DNA of 55,875 nucleotides from Bacteroidaceae bacterium (GTDB lineage: Bacteria > Bacteroidota > Bacteroidia > Bacteroidales > Bacteroidaceae). The translations under genes were made by a program, and so were the position numbers. Shown here piece after piece: positions 47,283-55,875 of the stretch; positions within the stretch are counted from its first letter, which is position 1; each line of letters begins with the position of its first letter. Under the pieces are notes generated by a model. That model searched no databases and was not told where the DNA came from. It saw nothing but the letters and a program-made list of their open reading frames with translations. The stretch covers positions 1 through 55,875 of the forward strand of contig JAFZYE010000030.1 of NCBI GenBank assembly GCA_017616445.1. The letters are read 5' to 3'.

Positions 47283-47869
47283 AAAAGTTAAGAATTAAGA
47301 GTTAAGAATTGAGAAAAATAGACTTTAGACGCTAGACTTTAGAAGAGAACAAACACTTTTTAATATTTTTGTTTTTCTCCGGAGGCTTTTTATTTATCTC
47401 AACACAGTATTTTACTGGTGAGCCGGAAAACTCACGGAAATCTCACGGAATCGTTTATTGTTTGTCATTCACCTGTCAGATAATGGATGAATCAAAGTGC
47501 CTGTCCCTATGATTCTGATTCTGCTGGTATATAGCTCCTCCGCTAAGATAGCGGAGGGGGACCGCTTGCGGTGGAGGAGTATGATGGTGACATAAGAGTA
47601 TGACTCTTTGGATATCACTCTGTCAGATCTTTTATTCAACAACTGGATATACACACAATAATGATGATGATGATAATGACAATGATACAGCCTTTACCAC
47701 CACCTCCTCCTGAGGGAGAATTATACGACTCTTCGAATGCTACAAAATCAAGAAAATCCATAATACTCCCTCTTATTTAACCCACCCTTCTTCATCGTTA
47801 TTCTCCAAAACTGACACTCTCCTCTGTCCCCAGTCAGATGACTAAAGTCTAGTGTCTAACGTCTAAAGT
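47283..47869. other. 587-bp intergenic region without a gene
   Basis: A low-complexity tract (47284-47345), a CTCCGGAG hairpin with a T-run (about 47376-47390), a G/C-rich intergenic repeat (47528-47583, relative of 32391-32425 and 33445-33472), an ATGATGATG run (47662-47672) and another TAAAGTCTAGTGTC tract (47840-47872). Confidence 0.5.
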
Positions 47870-48151
47870 CTATATTTTATCGCTTTTCTTTTTATCCTCT
47901 GTACTTTTATAAACATCATGGTTGAGTCCAATGATAAAGCCAGCGGCAGCAAAGAAGATGAAGCAGAGCCAACTCTCGAAGACCAAACCGAGGACTATTC
48001 CGATGATTGTGCCGACAACAGCAATCTTGCCGCCTGTAGTCACCGGTTCATCAGAACTTCTAGACGAGTATTTCGGAGAAGAGTTGTTCTCTTCCTCCTC
48101 CATCGCATCATTGATGGCCATGAATGTCATGAAATCTTTGAAGTCAAACAT
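47870..48151 (-). CDS. Small two-helix membrane protein of the candidate defence operon
   Basis: 93 residues. The N-terminus (MFDFKDFMTFMAINDAMEEEE) is amphipathic and acidic. Two hydrophobic helices with glycine-rich faces follow (about 42-58 and 60-77, IAVVGTIIGIVLGLVFES and CFIFFAAAGFIIGLN), then a charged tail. No named family. Starts 19 bp after the 520-residue gene and probably belongs to its operon. A membrane-acting effector is a possibility raised only by size and position. Confidence 0.6.
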   Translation of the reverse strand: MFDFKDFMTFMAINDAMEEEENNSSPKYSSRSSDEPVTTGGKIAVVGTIIGIVLGLVFESWLCFIFFAAAGFIIGLNHDVYKSTEDKKKSDKI

Positions 48152-48170
48152 CTTACAGATCTTTAGTAAA

Positions 48171-49733
48171 TCATTGTTTTTTTATTAGTGACCATCCATT
48201 GGCCATCAATTTTATTAGTTTCATATCGCTGTTATACTTCTTTGCATACTCAATGAATGAACGTAAGGCAAAATCACACACCTCTTGATAGTGGGCATCT
48301 ATATATTCCCACCATTCTTCATCAAGTACGATGTAGTTGGAGTGTATCGCATACAATCCGTTAAAACTCTTAGCACATGATTTCTCAATTACTTCTGCAT
48401 CTGTAGTATATTGTATCCAAGGCGAGAGAAAACGATATGGCACATTCTTCATTAGAGGAGCAAGTACTTTGTCAACCCCTTGTGAAGAATAGTGTTGCAT
48501 CAAATAGCACTCTACGACTTTGCTTGATGCACCTTTTATGAGCTTCGTTTTTTTAATGACCTCTTCAAAATACTTTCTCATCATGTCTCCGCTTCCCAGG
48601 TCAATGTCATTTTCAAATACGATTGGCCATGCCAAAGCTGCCATCCTTATGGTGATGTCATTGAAGGCTATGGAAAAGTGCTTGTTTTCCTTTGCCAATG
48701 AAATGATAGCCATCAACCAGAAATATTTATAGGAAGACGATTTTTTCTCAAACACCTTTTGAAGCATCTTAACGTCTATGGGATTCCTCACTTCCTCCTG
48801 GACTACAGAAGTTGAACAGCTTGGCTGTGAAACGTCAGCAGCAGGAGAATGAGCAGATGAAGGAATAACAACATGGACTTGTTTCGTTTCTTGCTCGTCG
48901 GATGTTTTATAGGGTTCTTTATTAGAGTCATCCCTATCTTCACCCTCATTCTCCGATTTGTCTGTAATTAAATCCTTATAAAAAGGTAATGCCTCTGCAT
49001 AATATGACAGTAATTCTGAAGGAACTACAATATGCTTTAGGCTATTGCATTCAATGATTGGGAACACACCGAACATGACCTTACCTTCAAACTTCAGTGA
49101 TTCAAGCTCATCGCAATAAGCGAATGCAGTATTGCCCACGTAAACAACATCTTTCGGAACTGTATAAGACTTGATTTTTGCTTTTAAGAAAGCATTGTTT
49201 CCTATGATGGAATCGGAAACACCTTTTGTGTTCTTAGCTAGATATCCGTAGTAAGAACGTTCATTCCTATATTCAGGGGTAATAATGGATTTCTTGAAGG
49301 CAGTTTTGATGTCATCGGAGAACTTATTATCATAATAATAGTTCTCCATCATATAGAACAGCATCTTAACCTCATCATCGTCCCAATTATCCATTATTAG
49401 GGACATATAGTTAATCCACTGGAAGCTATCTATTGGCTTGGATATAAAAATGAGGCTGTCATCATCACACAATTTAATGTATTTGTGATTAACTATGATA
49501 AGGCGCAAGGAAAGCAAAAGCGCAAGAGAGTGTACAGGTGTTCGATAGTTTTCAGATGTTCTAATTTTCAAAGATTCACCCAGAAATCTGCCATCAATAA
49601 AGAAATATGAATAATTATACAGTGAGAAATCCTTATCTACGAAGGCTTTTTTCACGCTGTAATAGAAGACATTCATGGCATAAACGTCTTCAATATACTT
49701 TTTGACATATGTAATAAGTGAAGTCTCTTTCAT
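48171..49733 (-). CDS. Protein combining BspA-type repeats with an HNH-nuclease-associated module
   Basis: 520 residues, no signal peptide. Residues about 1-165: an unrecognised region rich in Tyr. About 170-245: two or three LRR_5/BspA-like repeats (IIGNNAFLKAKIKSYTVPKD; YVGNTAFAYCDELESLKFEG). About 250-310: a charged, probably disordered linker. About 320-505: a region that reads like the N-terminal non-catalytic part of certain HNH endonucleases (SSYKYFWLMAIISLA; MAALAWPIVFE; VPYRFLSPW; EEWWEYIDAHYQEV). The HNH domain that normally follows is absent. Its start lies one base from the stop of the Hsp70-like gene. Function unknown. Confidence 0.65.
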   Translation of the reverse strand: MKETSLITYVKKYIEDVYAMNVFYYSVKKAFVDKDFSLYNYSYFFIDGRFLGESLKIRTSENYRTPVHSLALLLSLRLIIVNHKYIKLCDDDSLIFISKPIDSFQWINYMSLIMDNWDDDEVKMLFYMMENYYYDNKFSDDIKTAFKKSIITPEYRNERSYYGYLAKNTKGVSDSIIGNNAFLKAKIKSYTVPKDVVYVGNTAFAYCDELESLKFEGKVMFGVFPIIECNSLKHIVVPSELLSYYAEALPFYKDLITDKSENEGEDRDDSNKEPYKTSDEQETKQVHVVIPSSAHSPAADVSQPSCSTSVVQEEVRNPIDVKMLQKVFEKKSSSYKYFWLMAIISLAKENKHFSIAFNDITIRMAALAWPIVFENDIDLGSGDMMRKYFEEVIKKTKLIKGASSKVVECYLMQHYSSQGVDKVLAPLMKNVPYRFLSPWIQYTTDAEVIEKSCAKSFNGLYAIHSNYIVLDEEWWEYIDAHYQEVCDFALRSFIEYAKKYNSDMKLIKLMANGWSLIKKQ

Positions 49734-49734
49734 A

Positions 49735-51201
49735 TCAGCATTGGTCTTTACTTATTTCTTCAATAGTATTCTCATGCATCTTTGGCAGATGTTCAAACAA
49801 AGACTTATAGCTCTTCAGCTTTACATCCTCATCGCTTACACTTACCGACAAGCCGTATGCAGTAGTTAGGAGAAGTGACAGCTGAGCCACTGCAGCTTTG
49901 TCCTTTATGTTTTCCTCGTTCCATATTGAAGCATTGATGATACGTACATCGGTAAACGTATCAATGGGCTTGGTAAGGAAATCGAATGTGCTTCCTCCTC
50001 CAGAATATACTAGAATCCTGTCTTTAAGTGCATCCCTCAGGTTCTGCACTGGGATGCTCGTTTCATCCTGAATTTTTCTTGCTAAATCCCGAACCAGATT
50101 TGATACAAGTTCATGCTTTTTACGATTGAACTTATCAATAACTTCCTCTTGAACCTTACTGGCGAAGCCTCCGTCTGCATAATCAAATCCTGACCTTGCT
50201 GCTACATAATTCAAACCTCTTGGAATTGACCAGAACTTGTAAATCATAGGCAAACCTTCTTCTATGGTAAAGAAAGAAATGTCTGTCGTACCTCCTCCAA
50301 TGTCAGCTGTCAAGCTCATGCCGGCTGGCAGTTTTCCCCTTGATGTGAGTGCCGACAGACTTGCGTATGCTTCAGGGAATATGTTTATAACATACTCTTC
50401 TTTCAAATCATCAGAATATCTCAAACTCTCGGTTTTAGATAAGAGGGTTTCGTATTTCTCGTTCAAGAAGCGCGTAAAATCATTCTTATACACCTTCTCA
50501 ACAAGATGATAGGCGGCAGCAAGGATTTCAACAGCAAGACGTTTTTTTACTTCGAATGTCTCTTCATCAGCAGGTATTCCCATATTAATTGAAAAGTCCG
50601 TACCAAACCTCTCTTCGAGCAGAAAGATGACATAAGCAAGATACCAAACGCATAGCGTTCGATTGCTGATGAGAGTAACTCGGTTCCATTCACCACCTAT
50701 AAAGGTAGCCTGTTTAAAGTATCGGAATACATTCTTGGCGCTTTTATAATCATATAATAGCTTATCGTATTCCTTTTCCGCCTCTTCTTTCTTCCTTTCA
50801 TTTCTCTCTTTTACCATTTGAAGCCGTTTTTTAAGCATTTCGCTTAAGATATACAAGTCTTCAGGACTATTTTTATCTGTGGCATACTTGTCATAGAGCT
50901 GTCTTGCCTTTTCTGCTACGTCAAATTCTTCTTCAAGCAAAACGGACTGTTTAATAGGTTCGTCTTGTTCAGGCTTCATCCTGGCACTATCCACATAGCC
51001 ATACGATAATGTATCATCTTCGTTAATTTGAATGACAGAAGGCAGGAAATATTGTTCGCTACCCAGTAAGTCAGTAAACTTGAAATACTCAAAATTTGGC
51101 TCACCGCGACCTTCATCGGGAGTTCGGCGCACACAGATTTTTGTCTGATGAGTGCCAAAGTCGAGACCTATTTTTATTTCATCATTCATAGTGCTATACA
51201 A
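49735..51201 (-). CDS. Hsp70/actin-fold ATPase
   Basis: 488 residues. Phosphate-1 loop IGLDFGTHQTKICV (11-24), phosphate-2 loop TADIGGGTTDISFF and adenosine motif VYSGGGSTFDF show an Hsp70/actin-type ATPase. There is no Hsp70 substrate-binding domain of usual type. A long charged helix (about 125-155, KKRLQMVKERNERKKEEAEKEY) is inserted in the first half. The start overlaps the helicase stop by 8 bp; an ATG four codons later (51189) is also possible. Coupled to the SNF2 gene, it may act as a switch or sensor for it. Confidence 0.8.
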   Translation of the reverse strand: MYSTMNDEIKIGLDFGTHQTKICVRRTPDEGRGEPNFEYFKFTDLLGSEQYFLPSVIQINEDDTLSYGYVDSARMKPEQDEPIKQSVLLEEEFDVAEKARQLYDKYATDKNSPEDLYILSEMLKKRLQMVKERNERKKEEAEKEYDKLLYDYKSAKNVFRYFKQATFIGGEWNRVTLISNRTLCVWYLAYVIFLLEERFGTDFSINMGIPADEETFEVKKRLAVEILAAAYHLVEKVYKNDFTRFLNEKYETLLSKTESLRYSDDLKEEYVINIFPEAYASLSALTSRGKLPAGMSLTADIGGGTTDISFFTIEEGLPMIYKFWSIPRGLNYVAARSGFDYADGGFASKVQEEVIDKFNRKKHELVSNLVRDLARKIQDETSIPVQNLRDALKDRILVYSGGGSTFDFLTKPIDTFTDVRIINASIWNEENIKDKAAVAQLSLLLTTAYGLSVSVSDEDVKLKSYKSLFEHLPKMHENTIEEISKDQC

Positions 51202-54200
51202 CTTGTACGAGGTTTAACGATTTTATTTCCTGAGTAACTTTCAGGTTAACATCACGATTGATACGCTCAATGTCACTTTCTTTACGATCCAACAAATCTC
51301 GAAGATTGGCACGTTGCAGACGTAAGACGTTCTCTGTCCTCCTCAATTCATCATCGCTACCTGATGAAATGGCATATTCCCGCATCAACTCCTGATTGGC
51401 AATATTTCTCTCCATACTCTTCTGACGTGTTTCATAATATTGCATCGTCTGTTGGAAGCGAAGTTTCTTGCTGTTGTCTATGCGAGTCTGCATTTCCCCT
51501 CTATGTTTCCAAACATATGCATTGACACATTCATTAAAATCATAACGAAGGTCTGCAATTAGTTCTTCGCTAAGACGGTTTGACTCATCGAGAGGGGCGT
51601 ATTGCCCATCTACCTGTGCACGGCCCATGAATCTTTCAGCAAGGCTATGGTCATCAACAAGCTTGTCGTTAGTTACGTCAAAAAGTATGGGATAGAGAGA
51701 ATCTGTTACGACATCTCTTTCAAATTGGGTACGTGACACAGAAATTTTGTATATTGCCAGCATGTAGAGACCTTTGCCTATCTCTAAAGGCAGATGGTCA
51801 GAAGCTAACTGGAAGAAGAAGGTACACTGTGTCTTGTCACGCTTCGACTCAAAGAATTTTACCCCTGCCCTGATGATGGGATGGTAAATGTTGATAAATG
51901 CCAGCTTCTTTTCCTTGAAAGCCTTTTCCTGGTCAAAGGTCATGCGCAGCTCAAGCTCATCCTCAATTTCTGTGATGTATCTGCGGAAGAGCTTATTGCT
52001 ATCAGGATCCATCGGTTGGTATTGCTCCAAAAACCGTTTGAGCACCTTAGGATCACTTTTGGGGATACGAAGAACATACACATCAGGCGAATCAGAAAGC
52101 ACTAGCTCGCAGGTTGTCAGATGTTCTTTAAGTAACTGACGAACGAACTGATACAGCTCATGACTGGTAACGTATGCGTTGTTATTGATAATCTTGTTGA
52201 TTTCGTCCCTGAAATATGAGTCATTCGTCAGGGAATTAGTTAAACCTTCTTCTATCTTCTGTAGGTTCAGCTTCTCATTCTCAATTGCTCTTTCTATTTC
52301 TTTCCGTTTCTTTTCCACCTCTTCTGTATTCAACTTATCGGAATAGAAATCACGTTCCATGTACTTCAGAGCATCTTGAATGGTAATCGTCCTTCCGTCG
52401 TCTGTCTTCATGGTTGAATCTAGGATGGCTTCAAGGTCTCCGATTGATTCACGGAAGATACCGATACGATTCAGAAGCCGCTCATAAATATCTTCAAGAA
52501 TAGACTCTTCAACGATAATCGTGTTGATGTTCACCTTTGGCGATTCCTGACCAAAACGGTCTATACGACCGATGCGCTGTTCTACCACCATTGGGTTCCA
52601 AGGCAGATCATAGTTCACCAACGTATTGCAGAACTGCATGTCAAGACCTTCGCTGCCCACCTCAGAAGATAGTAACACCTTTACTGAATCGTCAAACTGG
52701 AATGTTCTTAACACTTCCGTTTTGTCAATTTTCGTATCTCCGTATATCAAGGCACATTTATATCCAGCCTTTCTCAGACGGATATTAAGATATTTAAGCG
52801 TCTTCTTGAAGATGGCAAAAATAATTATCTTCTTGTTGCCATGTTCGAAAACAGTCTGGAGTATGGATAGCAGTTTGTCCAACTTAGCATCGCGGTATTC
52901 GCTATAACAGTCAATGCCTCTGTCAAGATCTTCGTTGTCATTAAGATATGCCCAAACACTACTTGCCAGTTGGCGTTTTACAGTCACCAATCCCATACTC
53001 CCTGTCCTCTCTCTGCCATACTCGTCTATTACCGTATGGTCATCAATATAGTCTTCAATAGCTTGCTCGTAGGCATTGCGCTCATCCGACCACAAACTTA
53101 CCCTATGTGTATAGGGGTTTCGTTCAGCCTGTGTCCAGTCCTGAGTAACTTCACGCTTACGTGTTCTCGAGAAGATAGTATTCATAGGACTCATCTCCGA
53201 CAGATCGTATTGCAGCTGTGCTCTGACTGCTGGCGTGTCGTCACCCTTAGTCATCAGGCGAATGATGTCCTGATAGATTGGGTAGTCTCGGAAATAATCC
53301 TTGATCAAGAAATTTTGAGTTGACTCAATATCATTAATGGTGTTATAAGTAGTGACTTCTGAAGAAGACAATTCTTCTGCGATACCCTTCAGGTTTGCGC
53401 CACTGTTCAACTGACTAAGCGCCCGAACAAATGGTCTGTTCAACTGGATGTTGTTCCTGAAAACTTCGGGATTATCATACAAGTCATCATCAAGCAGGTG
53501 CAGTTGGTTGTACAGATTATATTCGTCTATCATAATAGGCGTAGCCGACATGAAAACCACACTGTTAGAAATCTGTAATAGCCTCTCTGCACCGTGATAT
53601 ATCAACGTAGTGTTGTTTCTTAATTTGTGTGACTCATCACAGATAATGATACTGAACTTTATATTTTTTTCTTCAATGACCTTCAGTATCTCGCTTGTTT
53701 CTCTTATCTTGTCATAGTTGAGAACAGCTAGAACACCACCGTTATGGTGCTGTAACTCATGTATCAGTGTCTCTTTCTTTTCTACTTCAATAAATTCCAA
53801 ACCGAATTTCTCATTCAACTCCGTTGCCCATTTAGAGCGCAGTGCCATTGGGCAGATGACAAGAGCGTTATGGAACTCACCTCTGGCTTTCAGTTCAAGC
53901 ATTATATGCCCAGCCTCAATGGTCTTACCAAGACCAACCTCATCAGCAATTAGCAAACGCCTGTTGTCTGAGTTCAAAAACTTTAACAAAGGCTTGAACT
54001 GGTAAGGCCGGAACAAAGTACGTGAAGCCTTCAGAGACGAAATGGTACTGTTATTAGAACTTTGTATCTTAAAAGCAGTATTACCTTTCAAATATTCTGA
54101 GTAATGATCATAGTAGTTCTCCTTGACGCGCTCAAACGGGTCAGTCAAGTCAACGTTTGGAAGGAGGTTTGCACTCAGCTCATCAGATTCCCTGTCATCA

Positions 54201-54313
54201 TATTTTACCTTATAAAGCTGGCGTCCTCTTCGAGGAGGATAAACCTCAATAACGTAGCCAATCTCATTGGTTACGACATTCTTTACTTTGTCTCCTTTTC
54301 CAAACTTGCTCAT
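51194..54313 (-). CDS. SNF2-family DNA helicase/translocase
   Basis: 1039 residues. N-terminal SH3/Tudor-like barrel (about 1-52), then SNF2 motor: motif I DEVGLGKT (K130), DEAH-type box DESH (226-229), SATP (256-259), and the C lobe with GSEGLDMQFCNTLVNYDLPWNP and the QRIGRIDRFGQ arginine finger motif. The last 300 residues are helical with coiled-coil stretches (about 955-1035). The size and layout resemble RapA/HepA-like and DrmD-like proteins of defence loci. No nuclease motif is seen, so it would need a partner. Leads the operon. Confidence 0.9.
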   Translation of the reverse strand: MSKFGKGDKVKNVVTNEIGYVIEVYPPRRGRQLYKVKYDDRESDELSANLLPNVDLTDPFERVKENYYDHYSEYLKGNTAFKIQSSNNSTISSLKASRTLFRPYQFKPLLKFLNSDNRRLLIADEVGLGKTIEAGHIMLELKARGEFHNALVICPMALRSKWATELNEKFGLEFIEVEKKETLIHELQHHNGGVLAVLNYDKIRETSEILKVIEEKNIKFSIIICDESHKLRNNTTLIYHGAERLLQISNSVVFMSATPIMIDEYNLYNQLHLLDDDLYDNPEVFRNNIQLNRPFVRALSQLNSGANLKGIAEELSSSEVTTYNTINDIESTQNFLIKDYFRDYPIYQDIIRLMTKGDDTPAVRAQLQYDLSEMSPMNTIFSRTRKREVTQDWTQAERNPYTHRVSLWSDERNAYEQAIEDYIDDHTVIDEYGRERTGSMGLVTVKRQLASSVWAYLNDNEDLDRGIDCYSEYRDAKLDKLLSILQTVFEHGNKKIIIFAIFKKTLKYLNIRLRKAGYKCALIYGDTKIDKTEVLRTFQFDDSVKVLLSSEVGSEGLDMQFCNTLVNYDLPWNPMVVEQRIGRIDRFGQESPKVNINTIIVEESILEDIYERLLNRIGIFRESIGDLEAILDSTMKTDDGRTITIQDALKYMERDFYSDKLNTEEVEKKRKEIERAIENEKLNLQKIEEGLTNSLTNDSYFRDEINKIINNNAYVTSHELYQFVRQLLKEHLTTCELVLSDSPDVYVLRIPKSDPKVLKRFLEQYQPMDPDSNKLFRRYITEIEDELELRMTFDQEKAFKEKKLAFINIYHPIIRAGVKFFESKRDKTQCTFFFQLASDHLPLEIGKGLYMLAIYKISVSRTQFERDVVTDSLYPILFDVTNDKLVDDHSLAERFMGRAQVDGQYAPLDESNRLSEELIADLRYDFNECVNAYVWKHRGEMQTRIDNSKKLRFQQTMQYYETRQKSMERNIANQELMREYAISSGSDDELRRTENVLRLQRANLRDLLDRKESDIERINRDVNLKVTQEIKSLNLVQVV

Positions 54314-54372
54314 TTTAGATTCAAATAATTAGAAATTCCATTTTCATGTACATCAAGGACAGATCATTTGAT

Positions 54373-54618
54373 TCAACGTATCATTTTTCCTGTCCCTTTG
54401 ATTCTTCGAGCGCGAATCCTACTAATAGAGAATTCCATCCGTACTGGCTTTGAAGAATCCAAGGGTACATCTAGCGAGTTTTGAATAGACTCTCGGATCA
54501 AAGAAGCATAAGGAGCTTTCTTGAAGTTGTCCTGCATCGGATCGTTAGGACCATCCTCACGACCTCCCAGTTGCTTTGCAAAGTGCCATTTACAATTACG
54601 TTCTATTTCATTCATCAT
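54373..54618 (-). pseudogene. Truncated GHKL (Hsp90-like) ATPase gene
   Basis: 81 residues. CKWHFAKQLGGREDGPNDPM, then the N-box helix SLIRESIQNSLDV with its Glu and Asn, the first ATP-site motif of GHKL ATPases. The frame stops just after the following strand (MEFSISRI), so the DxGxG and later ATP motifs and all downstream domains are missing. Only 59 bp separate the stop from the SNF2 start, so the rest has been deleted. It could be a real short protein but looks like a remnant. Confidence 0.55.
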
Positions 54619-54725
54619 ATATTAGATTATTGTATGTTTTAACACTCCTTTTTGTTATAAAACTCTGTGTTGTCACTCATCTTATGTCATTCATCCATCC
54701 CCTAGTACAATTTGTCGCCTAACAT
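54619..54725. other. Short A/T-rich spacer
   Basis: No gene or strong promoter seen between the methylase gene and the GHKL remnant. Confidence 0.4.
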
Positions 54726-55875
54726 CTAGTTAATACACTCAAGATTCTCGACTCCGTATAAATCACAAACGATTTTGTCTACATTGTTTGACAATTCTTT
54801 GAAACGAACGTCATCATTGCGTGATTGCATTAATTGATCAGCAAGATGGCTCAACTCTGCTGGTAGTTGCATTGGTATAGGTATTTGACGGAAGTTATCC
54901 CATATCAGTTGTGCTCCATTTTGTATACGAGGACAGAACTCCATAATGAGCCACCATCCAATTTTAGAGCACAGAAGAGCCAGCAACGCTTTATCAGGTA
55001 CAGTCATGAAGTACATAGAATTGTTGCAGAATGTTGAGGATTCGTCATAAACGAAACATGGTTTTGTCGGGAACACCTGATAAAAGAGCTTATGCTTTGC
55101 GAACTTGTCATAATAATCACATGCCCTAAGTTCCCACCAATAATCACCTTTATCCTGCCTATCTTTGGCTTCTTTCTTGAAATTTAATAGCCAATCGGAA
55201 ACAGCAGGATAATTAGAAGAGAACCATTGCCATGCATCATCTTCAGAGGGCATTAACTCTTCTTTCCAGTTCCTGTTATTTCTTTTGTCTTCGTCGGTTA
55301 TAACTATTCCCATTCCGTTTAGAGTGAAGCCTTTAGGGGTGTATACGAGAACTGAGCCAGCTTTTGCTTCACCATAAGCAACAAGTCCTCTGCCTTGCAA
55401 GAATGGGCGTAATACTTCTTTTGAGCGATTATCTTGTGATATTAATTCTTGGGCTTTGTCTAAACTGATATTAAATGCTTTGGAGAGACCAGATAATATC
55501 CCACGATAAGATTCTCCACCGACATACTCTCCCAATGTAATCATCTGCGACTTTAACCTTTCTATTGCATCGAAGTTGTCAAGACTGGATATTACCCATA
55601 TACCATCGTTCATTTTGGTAGTATCAAACTCTTCTTTCTCCTCTTCTACATCTTCATGAAGCATTTCCTTTCTTAGTTTTTGAAGAGTAGAAATCTGTAT
55701 ACTTCCCTTACTCTCTTCGTTTTTCATTCGAATAATGCATGTATAGGTGGTAGCATCTTCGAATAATTGATTATCGCAAAAATCAATTATTTGAGTTAGA
55801 TTCTTCTCTAGGAAGAGACCACGCAATGGTTTCCCATATATAACTTTTTCCCATTTGTTTGGAATGATATATGAA
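54726..55875 (-). CDS. Type IIG (Eco57I-like) restriction-modification methylase, C-terminal part (partial)
   Basis: Open to the right edge; 382 residues visible. It begins in the segment that follows the NPPY motif of Eco57I-type N6-adenine methylases (SYIIPNKWEKVIYGKPLRGL), so the catalytic motifs are outside the window. The rest is the TaqI-like target recognition domain: YGEAKAGSVLVYTPKGF, YWWELRACDYYDKFAKHKLFYQ and the closing NGAQLIWDNFRQIPIP motif. In type IIG enzymes or BREX/DISARM-like loci this domain chooses the DNA site. Same strand as the helicase cluster downstream. No frameshift in the visible part. Confidence 0.8.
   Translation of the reverse strand, partial: SYIIPNKWEKVIYGKPLRGLFLEKNLTQIIDFCDNQLFEDATTYTCIIRMKNEESKGSIQISTLQKLRKEMLHEDVEEEKEEFDTTKMNDGIWVISSLDNFDAIERLKSQMITLGEYVGGESYRGILSGLSKAFNISLDKAQELISQDNRSKEVLRPFLQGRGLVAYGEAKAGSVLVYTPKGFTLNGMGIVITDEDKRNNRNWKEELMPSEDDAWQWFSSNYPAVSDWLLNFKKEAKDRQDKGDYWWELRACDYYDKFAKHKLFYQVFPTKPCFVYDESSTFCNNSMYFMTVPDKALLALLCSKIGWWLIMEFCPRIQNGAQLIWDNFRQIPIPMQLPAELSHLADQLMQSRNDDVRFKELSNNVDKIVCDLYGVENLECIN

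What the first reader, a model, noticed from the sequence alone, without database searches (positions are those of the whole stretch)
47870..55875. Candidate undescribed defence locus: type IIG methylase, GHKL remnant, SNF2 helicase, Hsp70-like ATPase, LRR/HNH-module protein, small membrane protein
Seen: six minus-strand frames. Helicase, Hsp70-like and 520-aa genes overlap or lie within 1 bp, and the small membrane gene follows by 19 bp. Known: Eco57I-like methylases, SNF2 helicases and GHKL ATPases are typical of restriction-like phage defence. Inference: the SNF2 motor and Hsp70-like ATPase form a sensing/translocation unit, with the 520-aa and/or membrane protein as effector. I do not know a named system (DISARM, BREX, Zorya, Druantia) with this set; a complete DISARM is excluded because no drmA or drmB is visible.
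Basis: partly seen in the sequence, partly recalled or inferred. Interest (0 to 1): 0.78.

Follow-up and report, generated by a model that had tools for sequence, protein, structure and literature searches.

The report
SNF2 motor paired with Hsp70-like switch
An uncultured bacterium carries a gene pair, a DNA motor and a chaperone-like ATPase, that has stayed together across three bacterial phyla and sometimes sits beside known anti-phage genes, so it may well be an undescribed virus-defence module.

Summary
The six minus-strand frames are real and where stated, but they are not one unit. The conserved core is two adjacent genes: a 1,039-aa RapA/DrmD-like SNF2 ATPase and a 488-aa ATPase of the Hsp70/actin fold. 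In all 13 loci found with the Hsp70-like query (window included; ten lineages) SNF2 lies directly upstream on the same strand, -8 to +15 bp. Six of 19 plasmid neighbourhoods read hold the pair too. The two gene trees share 12 of 14 splits. The third gene varies: LRR/HNH-companion protein here, PtuA fusion plus PtuB (Septu) in L015; brxABC follows in L014. L007, the close relative with long flanks, is a low-GC three-gene cassette without methylase, GHKL gene or the 93-aa membrane gene. Best reading: a mobile, probably anti-phage module in which a translocase and an Hsp70-fold switch drive exchangeable effectors. No PADLOC, Pfam or NCBIfam model scanned covers the set, and ten paper searches found no description. 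Defence function is inferred, not shown.

The parts
51194..54313 (-). SNF2-family ATPase, 1,039 aa, RapA/DrmD-like; core gene 1
   Evidence: Pfam SNF2-rel_dom and Helicase_C; best PADLOC model DrmD 377 bits; nearest solved chain RapA; GLGKT, DESH and QRIGRIDR motifs present
49735..51201 (-). Hsp70/actin-fold (ASKHA) ATPase, 488 aa; core gene 2
   Evidence: Motifs GLDFGT, FPEA, DIGGGTTD, SGGG aligned with DnaK; aspartate, glutamate and aspartate positions kept in 17 of 17 rows; SNF2 directly upstream in 13 of 13 loci; tree congruence
48171..49733 (-). 520-aa protein: unknown N-terminal part, one BspA-type LRR_5 stretch (176-243), C-terminal HNH-companion module (~320-507) without HNH; clade-specific third gene
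   Evidence: LRR_5 9.4e-8; homologues in L007, L008 and L009 at 58-65% identity, the last two partial; companion module shared with ~357-aa proteins, HNH_4 in the one scanned
47870..48151 (-). 93-aa membrane protein; flanking gene, probably not part of the module
   Evidence: in L007 the next frame is an unrelated 121-aa one
54373..54618 (-). 81-aa remnant of a PDC-M33A-type (GHKL, recalled) gene; neighbour, not part of the module
   Evidence: PADLOC PDC-M33A 2.9e-14, model positions 3-73 of 627; no similar DNA in L007
54726..55874 (-). C-terminal part of a type IIG restriction-methylase, cut by the contig end; neighbour
   Evidence: TaqI_C, PADLOC REase_MTase_IIG 4.7e-23; no similar DNA in L007

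Best explanation
The locus is a probably horizontally acquired three-gene cassette built on a conserved two-gene core: a RapA/DrmD-like SNF2 ATPase and an Hsp70/actin-fold ATPase. It most likely works as an anti-phage module. The SNF2 protein loads on invading DNA or its transcription complexes and translocates with ATP. The Hsp70-fold partner acts as a nucleotide-dependent switch that reads the motor's state and passes the signal to an effector. The effector is exchangeable: in L015 the Hsp70-like ATPase is fused to PtuA and followed by PtuB (a Septu nuclease); here the slot is filled by the LRR/HNH-companion protein, which I take to be an adaptor or recognition subunit working with a nuclease from elsewhere. 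Shown here: the pairing, its parallel evolution, its spread, the ATPase motifs, low GC, and defence neighbours of some copies. Inferred: complex formation, what is sensed, the order of signalling, and the effector role.
For: 13 of 13 loci found with the Hsp70-like query (window included; four of them one clade) have SNF2 directly upstream on the same strand, spacing -8 to +15 bp. 6 of 19 plasmid neighbourhoods read have the pair, 5 distinct; in one (L027) the order is reversed with a 98-bp gap. SNF2 and Hsp70-like trees: 12 of 14 splits shared, r 0.976, 0 of 2000 permutations as high. Profile comparison of six Bacteroidota and four plasmid Hsp70-like proteins: probability 99.6, E 7e-24. Specificity: among the best 80 of 362 viral-contig SNF2 relatives only the closest, the same contig as L016, has this partner (exception L089 below). 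Septu fusion in L015 (PtuA 1.9e-79, PtuB 9.9e-73). brxA, brxB, brxC after the pair in L014; type III methylase, PDC-S19 and PDC-S68 beside L020. WYL regulators before the pair in L016 and L025. Cassette GC 37-40% in a 54% host (L007) and 37-42% against 47% in the window. Patchy: 4 of 301 genomes of the family, 3 of 393 of the order. Gene 3 diverges fastest: 58% identity to L007 against 81% and 90%.
Against: No phage-resistance test exists. L007 lies among scanned housekeeping genes, and L051 and L052 look the same by eye (frames not scanned). No nuclease was recognised in the window cassette. tblastn with Hsp70-like proteins found nothing in plasmid records (window and L013 queries) or phage records (L013 query only), so the tie to the plasmid partners rests on profiles and motifs; the two Sphingobium copies were missed by the profile built without plasmid rows. 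The trees conflict with support on one row (L015). Permutation of rows shows only that the trees are alike, which a few deep groups alone could cause. 9 of 19 plasmid SNF2 relatives read have neither an Hsp70- nor a GHKL-like neighbour. L014's BREX genes may be an independent neighbour. L089 shows that a DnaK-like gene can also lie near an SNF2 gene without this arrangement. No structure could be predicted.
Confidence: 0.62

Rival explanations
1. A RapA-like transcription accessory: the SNF2 protein recycles stalled RNA polymerase and the Hsp70-like ATPase helps remodel the complex. It is a mobile housekeeping or stress module, not a defence system.
For: Nearest solved chains are RapA, residues 72-309 aligned in most; NCBIfam RapA model 169 bits; L007 sits among housekeeping genes.
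Against: Presence in about 1% of the related genomes sampled, low-GC cassette, Septu fusion and defence neighbours do not suit a housekeeping role. The RapA score is far below its cut-off (169 against 576).
Confidence: 0.13
2. A maintenance or partition device of mobile elements: an actin-fold ATPase (ParM-like) with a DNA translocase.
For: Copies on plasmids of Sphingobium and Cyanobacterium HL-69 near parA, parB or mob genes; GLDFGT-type actin fold.
Against: The Sphingobium plasmids carry their own ParA/ParB; L007 is among chromosomal housekeeping genes; fusion to PtuA and adjacency to BREX point elsewhere. Defence genes also travel on plasmids (recalled).
Confidence: 0.1
3. One reading: one locus of methylase, GHKL ATPase, SNF2, Hsp70-like, LRR and membrane proteins acting together, with host DNA protected by the methylase.
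For: All six frames lie on one strand with short gaps in the window.
Against: L007 carries only the three genes between a trpS-like gene and a leu operon; the GHKL frame is an 81-aa stub; the 13 loci share only two genes.
Confidence: 0.05
4. A reduced or divergent DISARM that keeps DrmD and has replaced DrmA/DrmB.
For: DrmD is the best PADLOC and NCBIfam model (377 and 297 bits).
Against: Below the 610-bit cut-off; no MZB (DrmB) domain in the held, 70%-complete genome; the partner is an Hsp70-fold ATPase, which I do not know from DISARM (recalled).
Confidence: 0.07

Closest known systems
DISARM (DrmD)
   Same: SNF2-family ATPase of about 1,000 aa; DrmD is the best-scoring model
   Different: Score under the curated cut-off; no DrmB-type MZB domain in the held genome; Hsp70-fold partner instead
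BREX with BrxHI/BrxHII, Zorya ZorD, Hma, Dpd DpdE
   Same: All have SNF2-like helicases whose models hit this protein (94-184 bits for the best model of each)
   Different: Scores lower than DrmD (377); none of their other proteins was listed for the six window proteins; L014 has brxABC as neighbours of the pair
Septu (PtuA/PtuB), also effector of type I-A retrons
   Same: L015 has PtuA fused to the Hsp70-like ATPase and PtuB next to it, so the same effector is used
   Different: The window has neither PtuA nor PtuB; SNF2 and the Hsp70-fold part are not parts of Septu (recalled)
CoCoNuT type III (CnuD Hsp70-like; PMC11090510, passages read)
   Same: An Hsp70-like protein serves in a predicted defence system
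   Different: There it goes with McrB-like GTPase and DUF2357 proteins; the passages read describe no SNF2 plus Hsp70-like pair, though they announce a separate paper on a DISARM-like association of McrBC
MORC/paraMORC restriction operons (PMC2292703, passages read)
   Same: GHKL ATPases with SWI2/SNF2 helicases and HNH nucleases; resembles the plasmid sister group with Hsp90/GHKL-like partners
   Different: HSP70 does not occur in that text; the window's GHKL gene is a stub
RapA
   Same: Closest solved structure to the SNF2 protein
   Different: Far below the RapA model cut-off; accessory and paired

Membership tests
DISARM | DrmD over the curated cut-off | tested here: not met
   296.8 and 294.6 bits against 610
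DISARM | DrmB (MZB/DUF1998 domain) | tested here: not met
   0 matches for PF09369 in the held genome; 8 of 14 control genomes ring; the genome is only 70% complete
DISARM | DrmA helicase beside DrmB | tested here: inconclusive
   Only the SNF2 protein itself hits DrmA, weaker than DrmD (141 against 377 bits); contig ends nearby
BREX | PglZ, BrxC and PglX-type core | tested here: not met
   No such hit listed for the six window proteins; brxABC only in L014
Zorya | ZorD with ZorA/ZorB motor proteins | tested here: not met
   ZorD 94 bits against DrmD 377; no ZorA/ZorB hit listed for the six proteins
Hma | HmaA with HmaB methylase and HmaC ATPase | tested here: not met
   HmaA 146 bits, no HmaB or HmaC hit listed for the six proteins (the best 25 of 43 rows seen for SNF2)
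Septu | PtuA plus PtuB | tested here: not met
   No hit listed for the window proteins; met in the relative L015
CoCoNuT | McrB-like GTPase and McrC/DUF2357 | tested here: not met
   No such Pfam or PADLOC hit listed for the six window proteins
Hsp70 (Pfam PF00012) | Match over the Pfam cut-off | tested here: not met
   No HSP70 match for the window protein or for the 8 other family members scanned; the ten remaining members were not scanned with Pfam
Hsp70/actin (ASKHA) fold superfamily | Phosphate-1, connect-1, phosphate-2 and adenosine motifs in order | tested here: met
   All four align with the genome's own DnaK in 17 rows (motif names recalled); local hhalign match to DnaK E 1.4e-4, probability only 53; no fold was predicted
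SNF2 family | SNF2-rel and Helicase_C domains with motifs I, II and VI | tested here: met
Anti-phage defence system (functional) | Protects against phage in an experiment | not testable with these tools
   Needs plating assays

The most novel reading that the evidence does not exclude
A new class of prokaryotic immune module in which a SNF2 translocase is gated by a chaperone-fold ATPase and drives interchangeable effectors (Septu nuclease by direct fusion, an LRR/HNH-companion adaptor, others). A sister group of SNF2 proteins does the same with an Hsp90/GHKL-fold partner. The Hsp70 and Hsp90 folds would then have been recruited alternatively as switches on one motor.
Probability: 0.45. Interest if true: 0.82.

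Novelty: new variant of a known kind. Interest (0 to 1): 0.63.

Why it matters
SNF2-like motors recur in bacterial immunity, but how they signal to effectors is, to my knowledge, mostly open. A compact two-ATPase core that keeps its partner over deep divergence while swapping what hangs on it gives a tractable system. It offers an unusual role for an Hsp70-fold protein and a natural link (L015) between a translocase and the Septu nuclease. It also gives annotators a signature: a RapA/DrmD-like SNF2 gene followed, in most copies within about 15 bp, by a 410-590-aa GLDFGT-type protein that Pfam mostly leaves blank.

Tried and rejected
Rejected: (1) the six-gene unit, because L007 has only three genes. 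(2) The 93-aa membrane protein as effector: no counterpart in L007. (3) The 520-aa protein as a universal third gene: other clades have a 228-aa protein (L051, L053), a 141-aa protein (L016), PtuB (L015), brxA (L014) or a convergent neighbour instead (L013, L020); in L025 the contig ends, and L052 has only a short, broken-looking frame, judged by eye. (4) DISARM, BREX, Zorya and Hma membership (see table).

Led nowhere: plasmid and phage tblastn with Hsp70-like proteins; viral scans with the single Hsp70-like protein, the 520-aa alignment and the plasmid Hsp70-like alignment; solved-structure searches with the Hsp70-like profiles (nothing significant); promoter and terminator scan (33 promoter-like sites against 24 expected, 7 terminator-like against 5.7; uninformative). 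Ten paper searches, seven of them aimed at the pair, listed no paper on it; the library lacks most subscription papers.

Caveats on counts: the genome search samples overlap, so tallies must not be summed; the nine distinct positive genomes include the window's own. 19 of 25 plasmid records were read; six Halobacterium rows with the same scores were not. L028 and L037 are near-identical. The 80 viral SNF2 loci are the best 80 of 362, many near contig ends, where a partner would be missed. Left out of the SNF2 tree: L008 (partial), L037, L042, L043, L044 and the viral SNF2 loci other than L016. The 17-row Hsp70-like profile was built partly from the plasmid rows it then recovers.
Full report
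What is in the window. The window is a whole contig of a 2.38-Mb, 81-contig, 70%-complete genome; its closest relatives in the species-genome collection are titled uncultured Prevotella, uncultured Bacteroidaceae (both red deer isolates) and 'bacterium P3', so it is probably a Bacteroidales genome. The methylase end is cut by the contig end. The GHKL frame is an 81-aa stub that matches positions 3-73 of the 627-position PADLOC model PDC-M33A (that this model is a GHKL family is recalled).

What the core is. A scan of one genome per species for 84,980 species with the Hsp70-like protein gave three loci: L007 (79-kb contig), L008 and L009 (short contigs). All three have the order SNF2, Hsp70-like, 520-aa-type gene; identities to the window are 88-90%, 76-81% and 58-65%. 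In L008 SNF2 and gene 3 are cut by the contig ends; in L009 gene 3 is a 408-aa frame near the end. L007 has long flanks. There the three genes sit between a trpS-like gene and a leu operon, and blastn of the window against its 21 kb matches only the three genes, so nothing like the methylase, the GHKL stub or the 93-aa gene is there. Their GC is 37-40% while the flanks are 54%; in the window the three genes are 37-42% against 47% for bases 1-47,200. So the mobile unit of this clade is three genes.

Distant relatives. Searches with the Hsp70-like protein or its profiles in overlapping samples found matches in 2 of 295 and 3 of 393 genomes of the order, 3 of 395 of the phylum, 3 of 244 of the class of G605, 4 of 301 of the family and 1 of 17 of the genus, the window's own genome. 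One viral-collection contig, L016, was added. In all 13 resulting loci (window, L007, L008, L009, L013, L014, L015, L016, L020, L025, L051, L052, L053) an SNF2 gene lies directly upstream on the same strand, with spacing from 8 bp of overlap to 15 bp. The searches used only the Hsp70-like protein, so this is not circular; counting the window's clade once, it is ten lineages.

Plasmids. The SNF2 protein hits 25 plasmid records at E 1e-20; I read 19. An Hsp70-like gene adjoins SNF2 in 6: Leptolyngbya (upstream of SNF2, 98 bp), Cyanobacterium HL-69, Aminobacter, Shinella (unannotated) and two near-identical Sphingobium plasmids. A nine-row profile built without plasmid rows recovers four of these six; the two Sphingobium copies were seen by motif. 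The 17-row profile finds all six, but was partly built from them. A profile-profile comparison of six Bacteroidota and four plasmid rows gives probability 99.6 and E 7e-24. Four more records have an Hsp90/GHKL-like gene directly downstream instead (L026, L029, L030, L038). The other nine have neither by these profiles.

Co-evolution and specificity. In a 27-row SNF2 tree the Hsp70- and GHKL-partnered proteins together lie on one side of a branch with 100/100 support, away from six other SNF2 proteins; the Hsp70-partnered ones alone are not shown to be one clade. A 17-row tree of the Hsp70-like proteins shares 12 of 14 splits with the SNF2 tree (r 0.976; 0 of 2000 permutations as high). The two differences are the order within window, L007 and L009 (weak) and the place of L015 (supported in both trees, so a real conflict). 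As a control, among the best 80 of 362 viral-contig SNF2 relatives only the closest, at 44% identity and the same contig as L016, has the Hsp70-like partner; the next three, at 27-29%, have a GHKL-like gene nearby (in L082 on the other strand), and L103 has a weaker GHKL-like match. One more (L089) holds a DnaK-like gene about 2.5 kb away on the other strand, with a different set of genes. The flanks were at most 5 kb and many contigs end near the gene.

Chemistry. SNF2 motifs are present (GLGKT, DESH, QRIGRIDR). The closest solved chains are RapA. The Hsp70-like protein has no match over a cut-off in Pfam or NCBIfam and none among solved structures. Its four nucleotide-binding motifs align with the genome's own DnaK; the phosphate-1 aspartate, the connect-1 glutamate and the first phosphate-2 aspartate are kept in 17 of 17 rows and the second phosphate-2 aspartate in 16 of 17 (motif names recalled). 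The profile comparison with DnaK is only local (45 columns, probability 53, E 1.4e-4). I take it as an ATPase of the Hsp70/actin superfamily without a recognised substrate-binding half, not an Hsp70 chaperone in the strict sense; no structure could be predicted to confirm the fold.

The third gene. The 520-aa protein has one LRR_5 stretch and, at about 320-507, a module found in many related genomes. Of nine such loci read, seven are 356-369-aa proteins with the module in their N-terminal half, one (L055) has a Helicase_C domain and one (L065) is an 804-aa protein without Pfam match; HNH_4 was confirmed by Pfam in the one 357-aa protein scanned (L057) and is plain by eye in the others. The 520-aa protein has no HNH match. 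Other clades fill the slot otherwise: a 228-aa protein in L051 and L053, a 141-aa protein in L016, and in L015 a fusion of the Hsp70-like ATPase to PtuA (residues 420-865, 1.9e-79) with PtuB next (9.9e-73).

Why defence. Direct Septu fusion; brxA, brxB and brxC on the same strand, brxA starting 234 bp after the pair in L014; a type III methylase, PDC-S19 and PDC-S68 proteins beside L020; a DpdF/PsyrT-like helicase and an HNH protein beside L013; WYL-domain regulators before the pair in L016 and L025 (their role in defence control is recalled); rare, patchy copies, of low GC in the two loci measured; fastest divergence in gene 3. Against: L007, and by eye L051 and L052, lie outside obvious defence islands; no nuclease recognised in the window cassette; no matched control for the frequency of defence neighbours; no experiment.

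Mechanism proposed. Shown: the pair behaves as one evolutionary unit, both ATPases keep their motifs, the effector slot changes. Inferred: SNF2 translocates on invading DNA or displaces bound complexes; the Hsp70-fold protein changes conformation with ATP and relays this; the attached protein acts. The L015 fusion is the strongest hint that the Hsp70-like part, not SNF2, touches the effector. For the window I take the 520-aa protein as a recognition or adaptor subunit working with a nuclease encoded elsewhere; a direct toxic role is possible.

Literature. Ten full-text searches, seven aimed at the pair, listed no paper on an SNF2 plus Hsp70-like pair. Passages were read in PMC11090510, PMC7159879, PMC2292703 and PMC3710099; the other papers were seen as listings only. 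The passages describe Hsp70-like proteins with McrB GTPases or with GTPase/tubulin systems, and GHKL proteins with SNF2 helicases, but not this pair. The library lacks most subscription papers and preprints, so a published description may exist.

Noticed in passing
L026, L029, L030, L038 (plasmids); L081, L082, L083 (viral contigs): Sister SNF2 proteins have an Hsp90/GHKL-like ~1,030-1,110-aa gene directly downstream in the four plasmid loci, and GHKL-like frames near SNF2 in the three viral contigs (on the other strand in L082): the same motor with another chaperone-fold partner.
   Followed up: partly
L015:5789-9339: Hsp70-like ATPase fused to PtuA, followed by PtuB, after an SNF2 gene; a Septu effector attached to a translocase pair, with a DNA methylase of the N6_N4 type further on.
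   Followed up: partly
window 48171-49733; L055, L057, L065: A ~190-aa companion module of HNH_4 proteins occurs without an HNH match in the 520-aa protein, in a protein with a Helicase_C domain and in an 804-aa protein; Pfam gave no model for it in these scans.
   Followed up: partly
window 54373-54618: 81-aa stub of a PDC-M33A-type gene between a type IIG methylase end and the SNF2 gene; a decayed defence-type gene at the contig edge.
   Followed up: no
L089:1-11554: A DnaK-like gene with a C-terminal half on the strand opposite a 1,183-aa SNF2-type helicase, with an AAA-type ATPase frame after it; a different arrangement of Hsp70 and helicase.
   Followed up: partly
L020:2247-7135: PDC-S19 (DUF3644) and a 1,224-aa PDC-S68 RecD-like protein next to a type III methylase, convergent with the pair.
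   Followed up: no
window about 47630-47760, minus strand: A short glycine- and isoleucine-rich frame beginning MDFLDF resembles, by eye, the start of the 93-aa membrane gene, perhaps a second small membrane protein.
   Followed up: no
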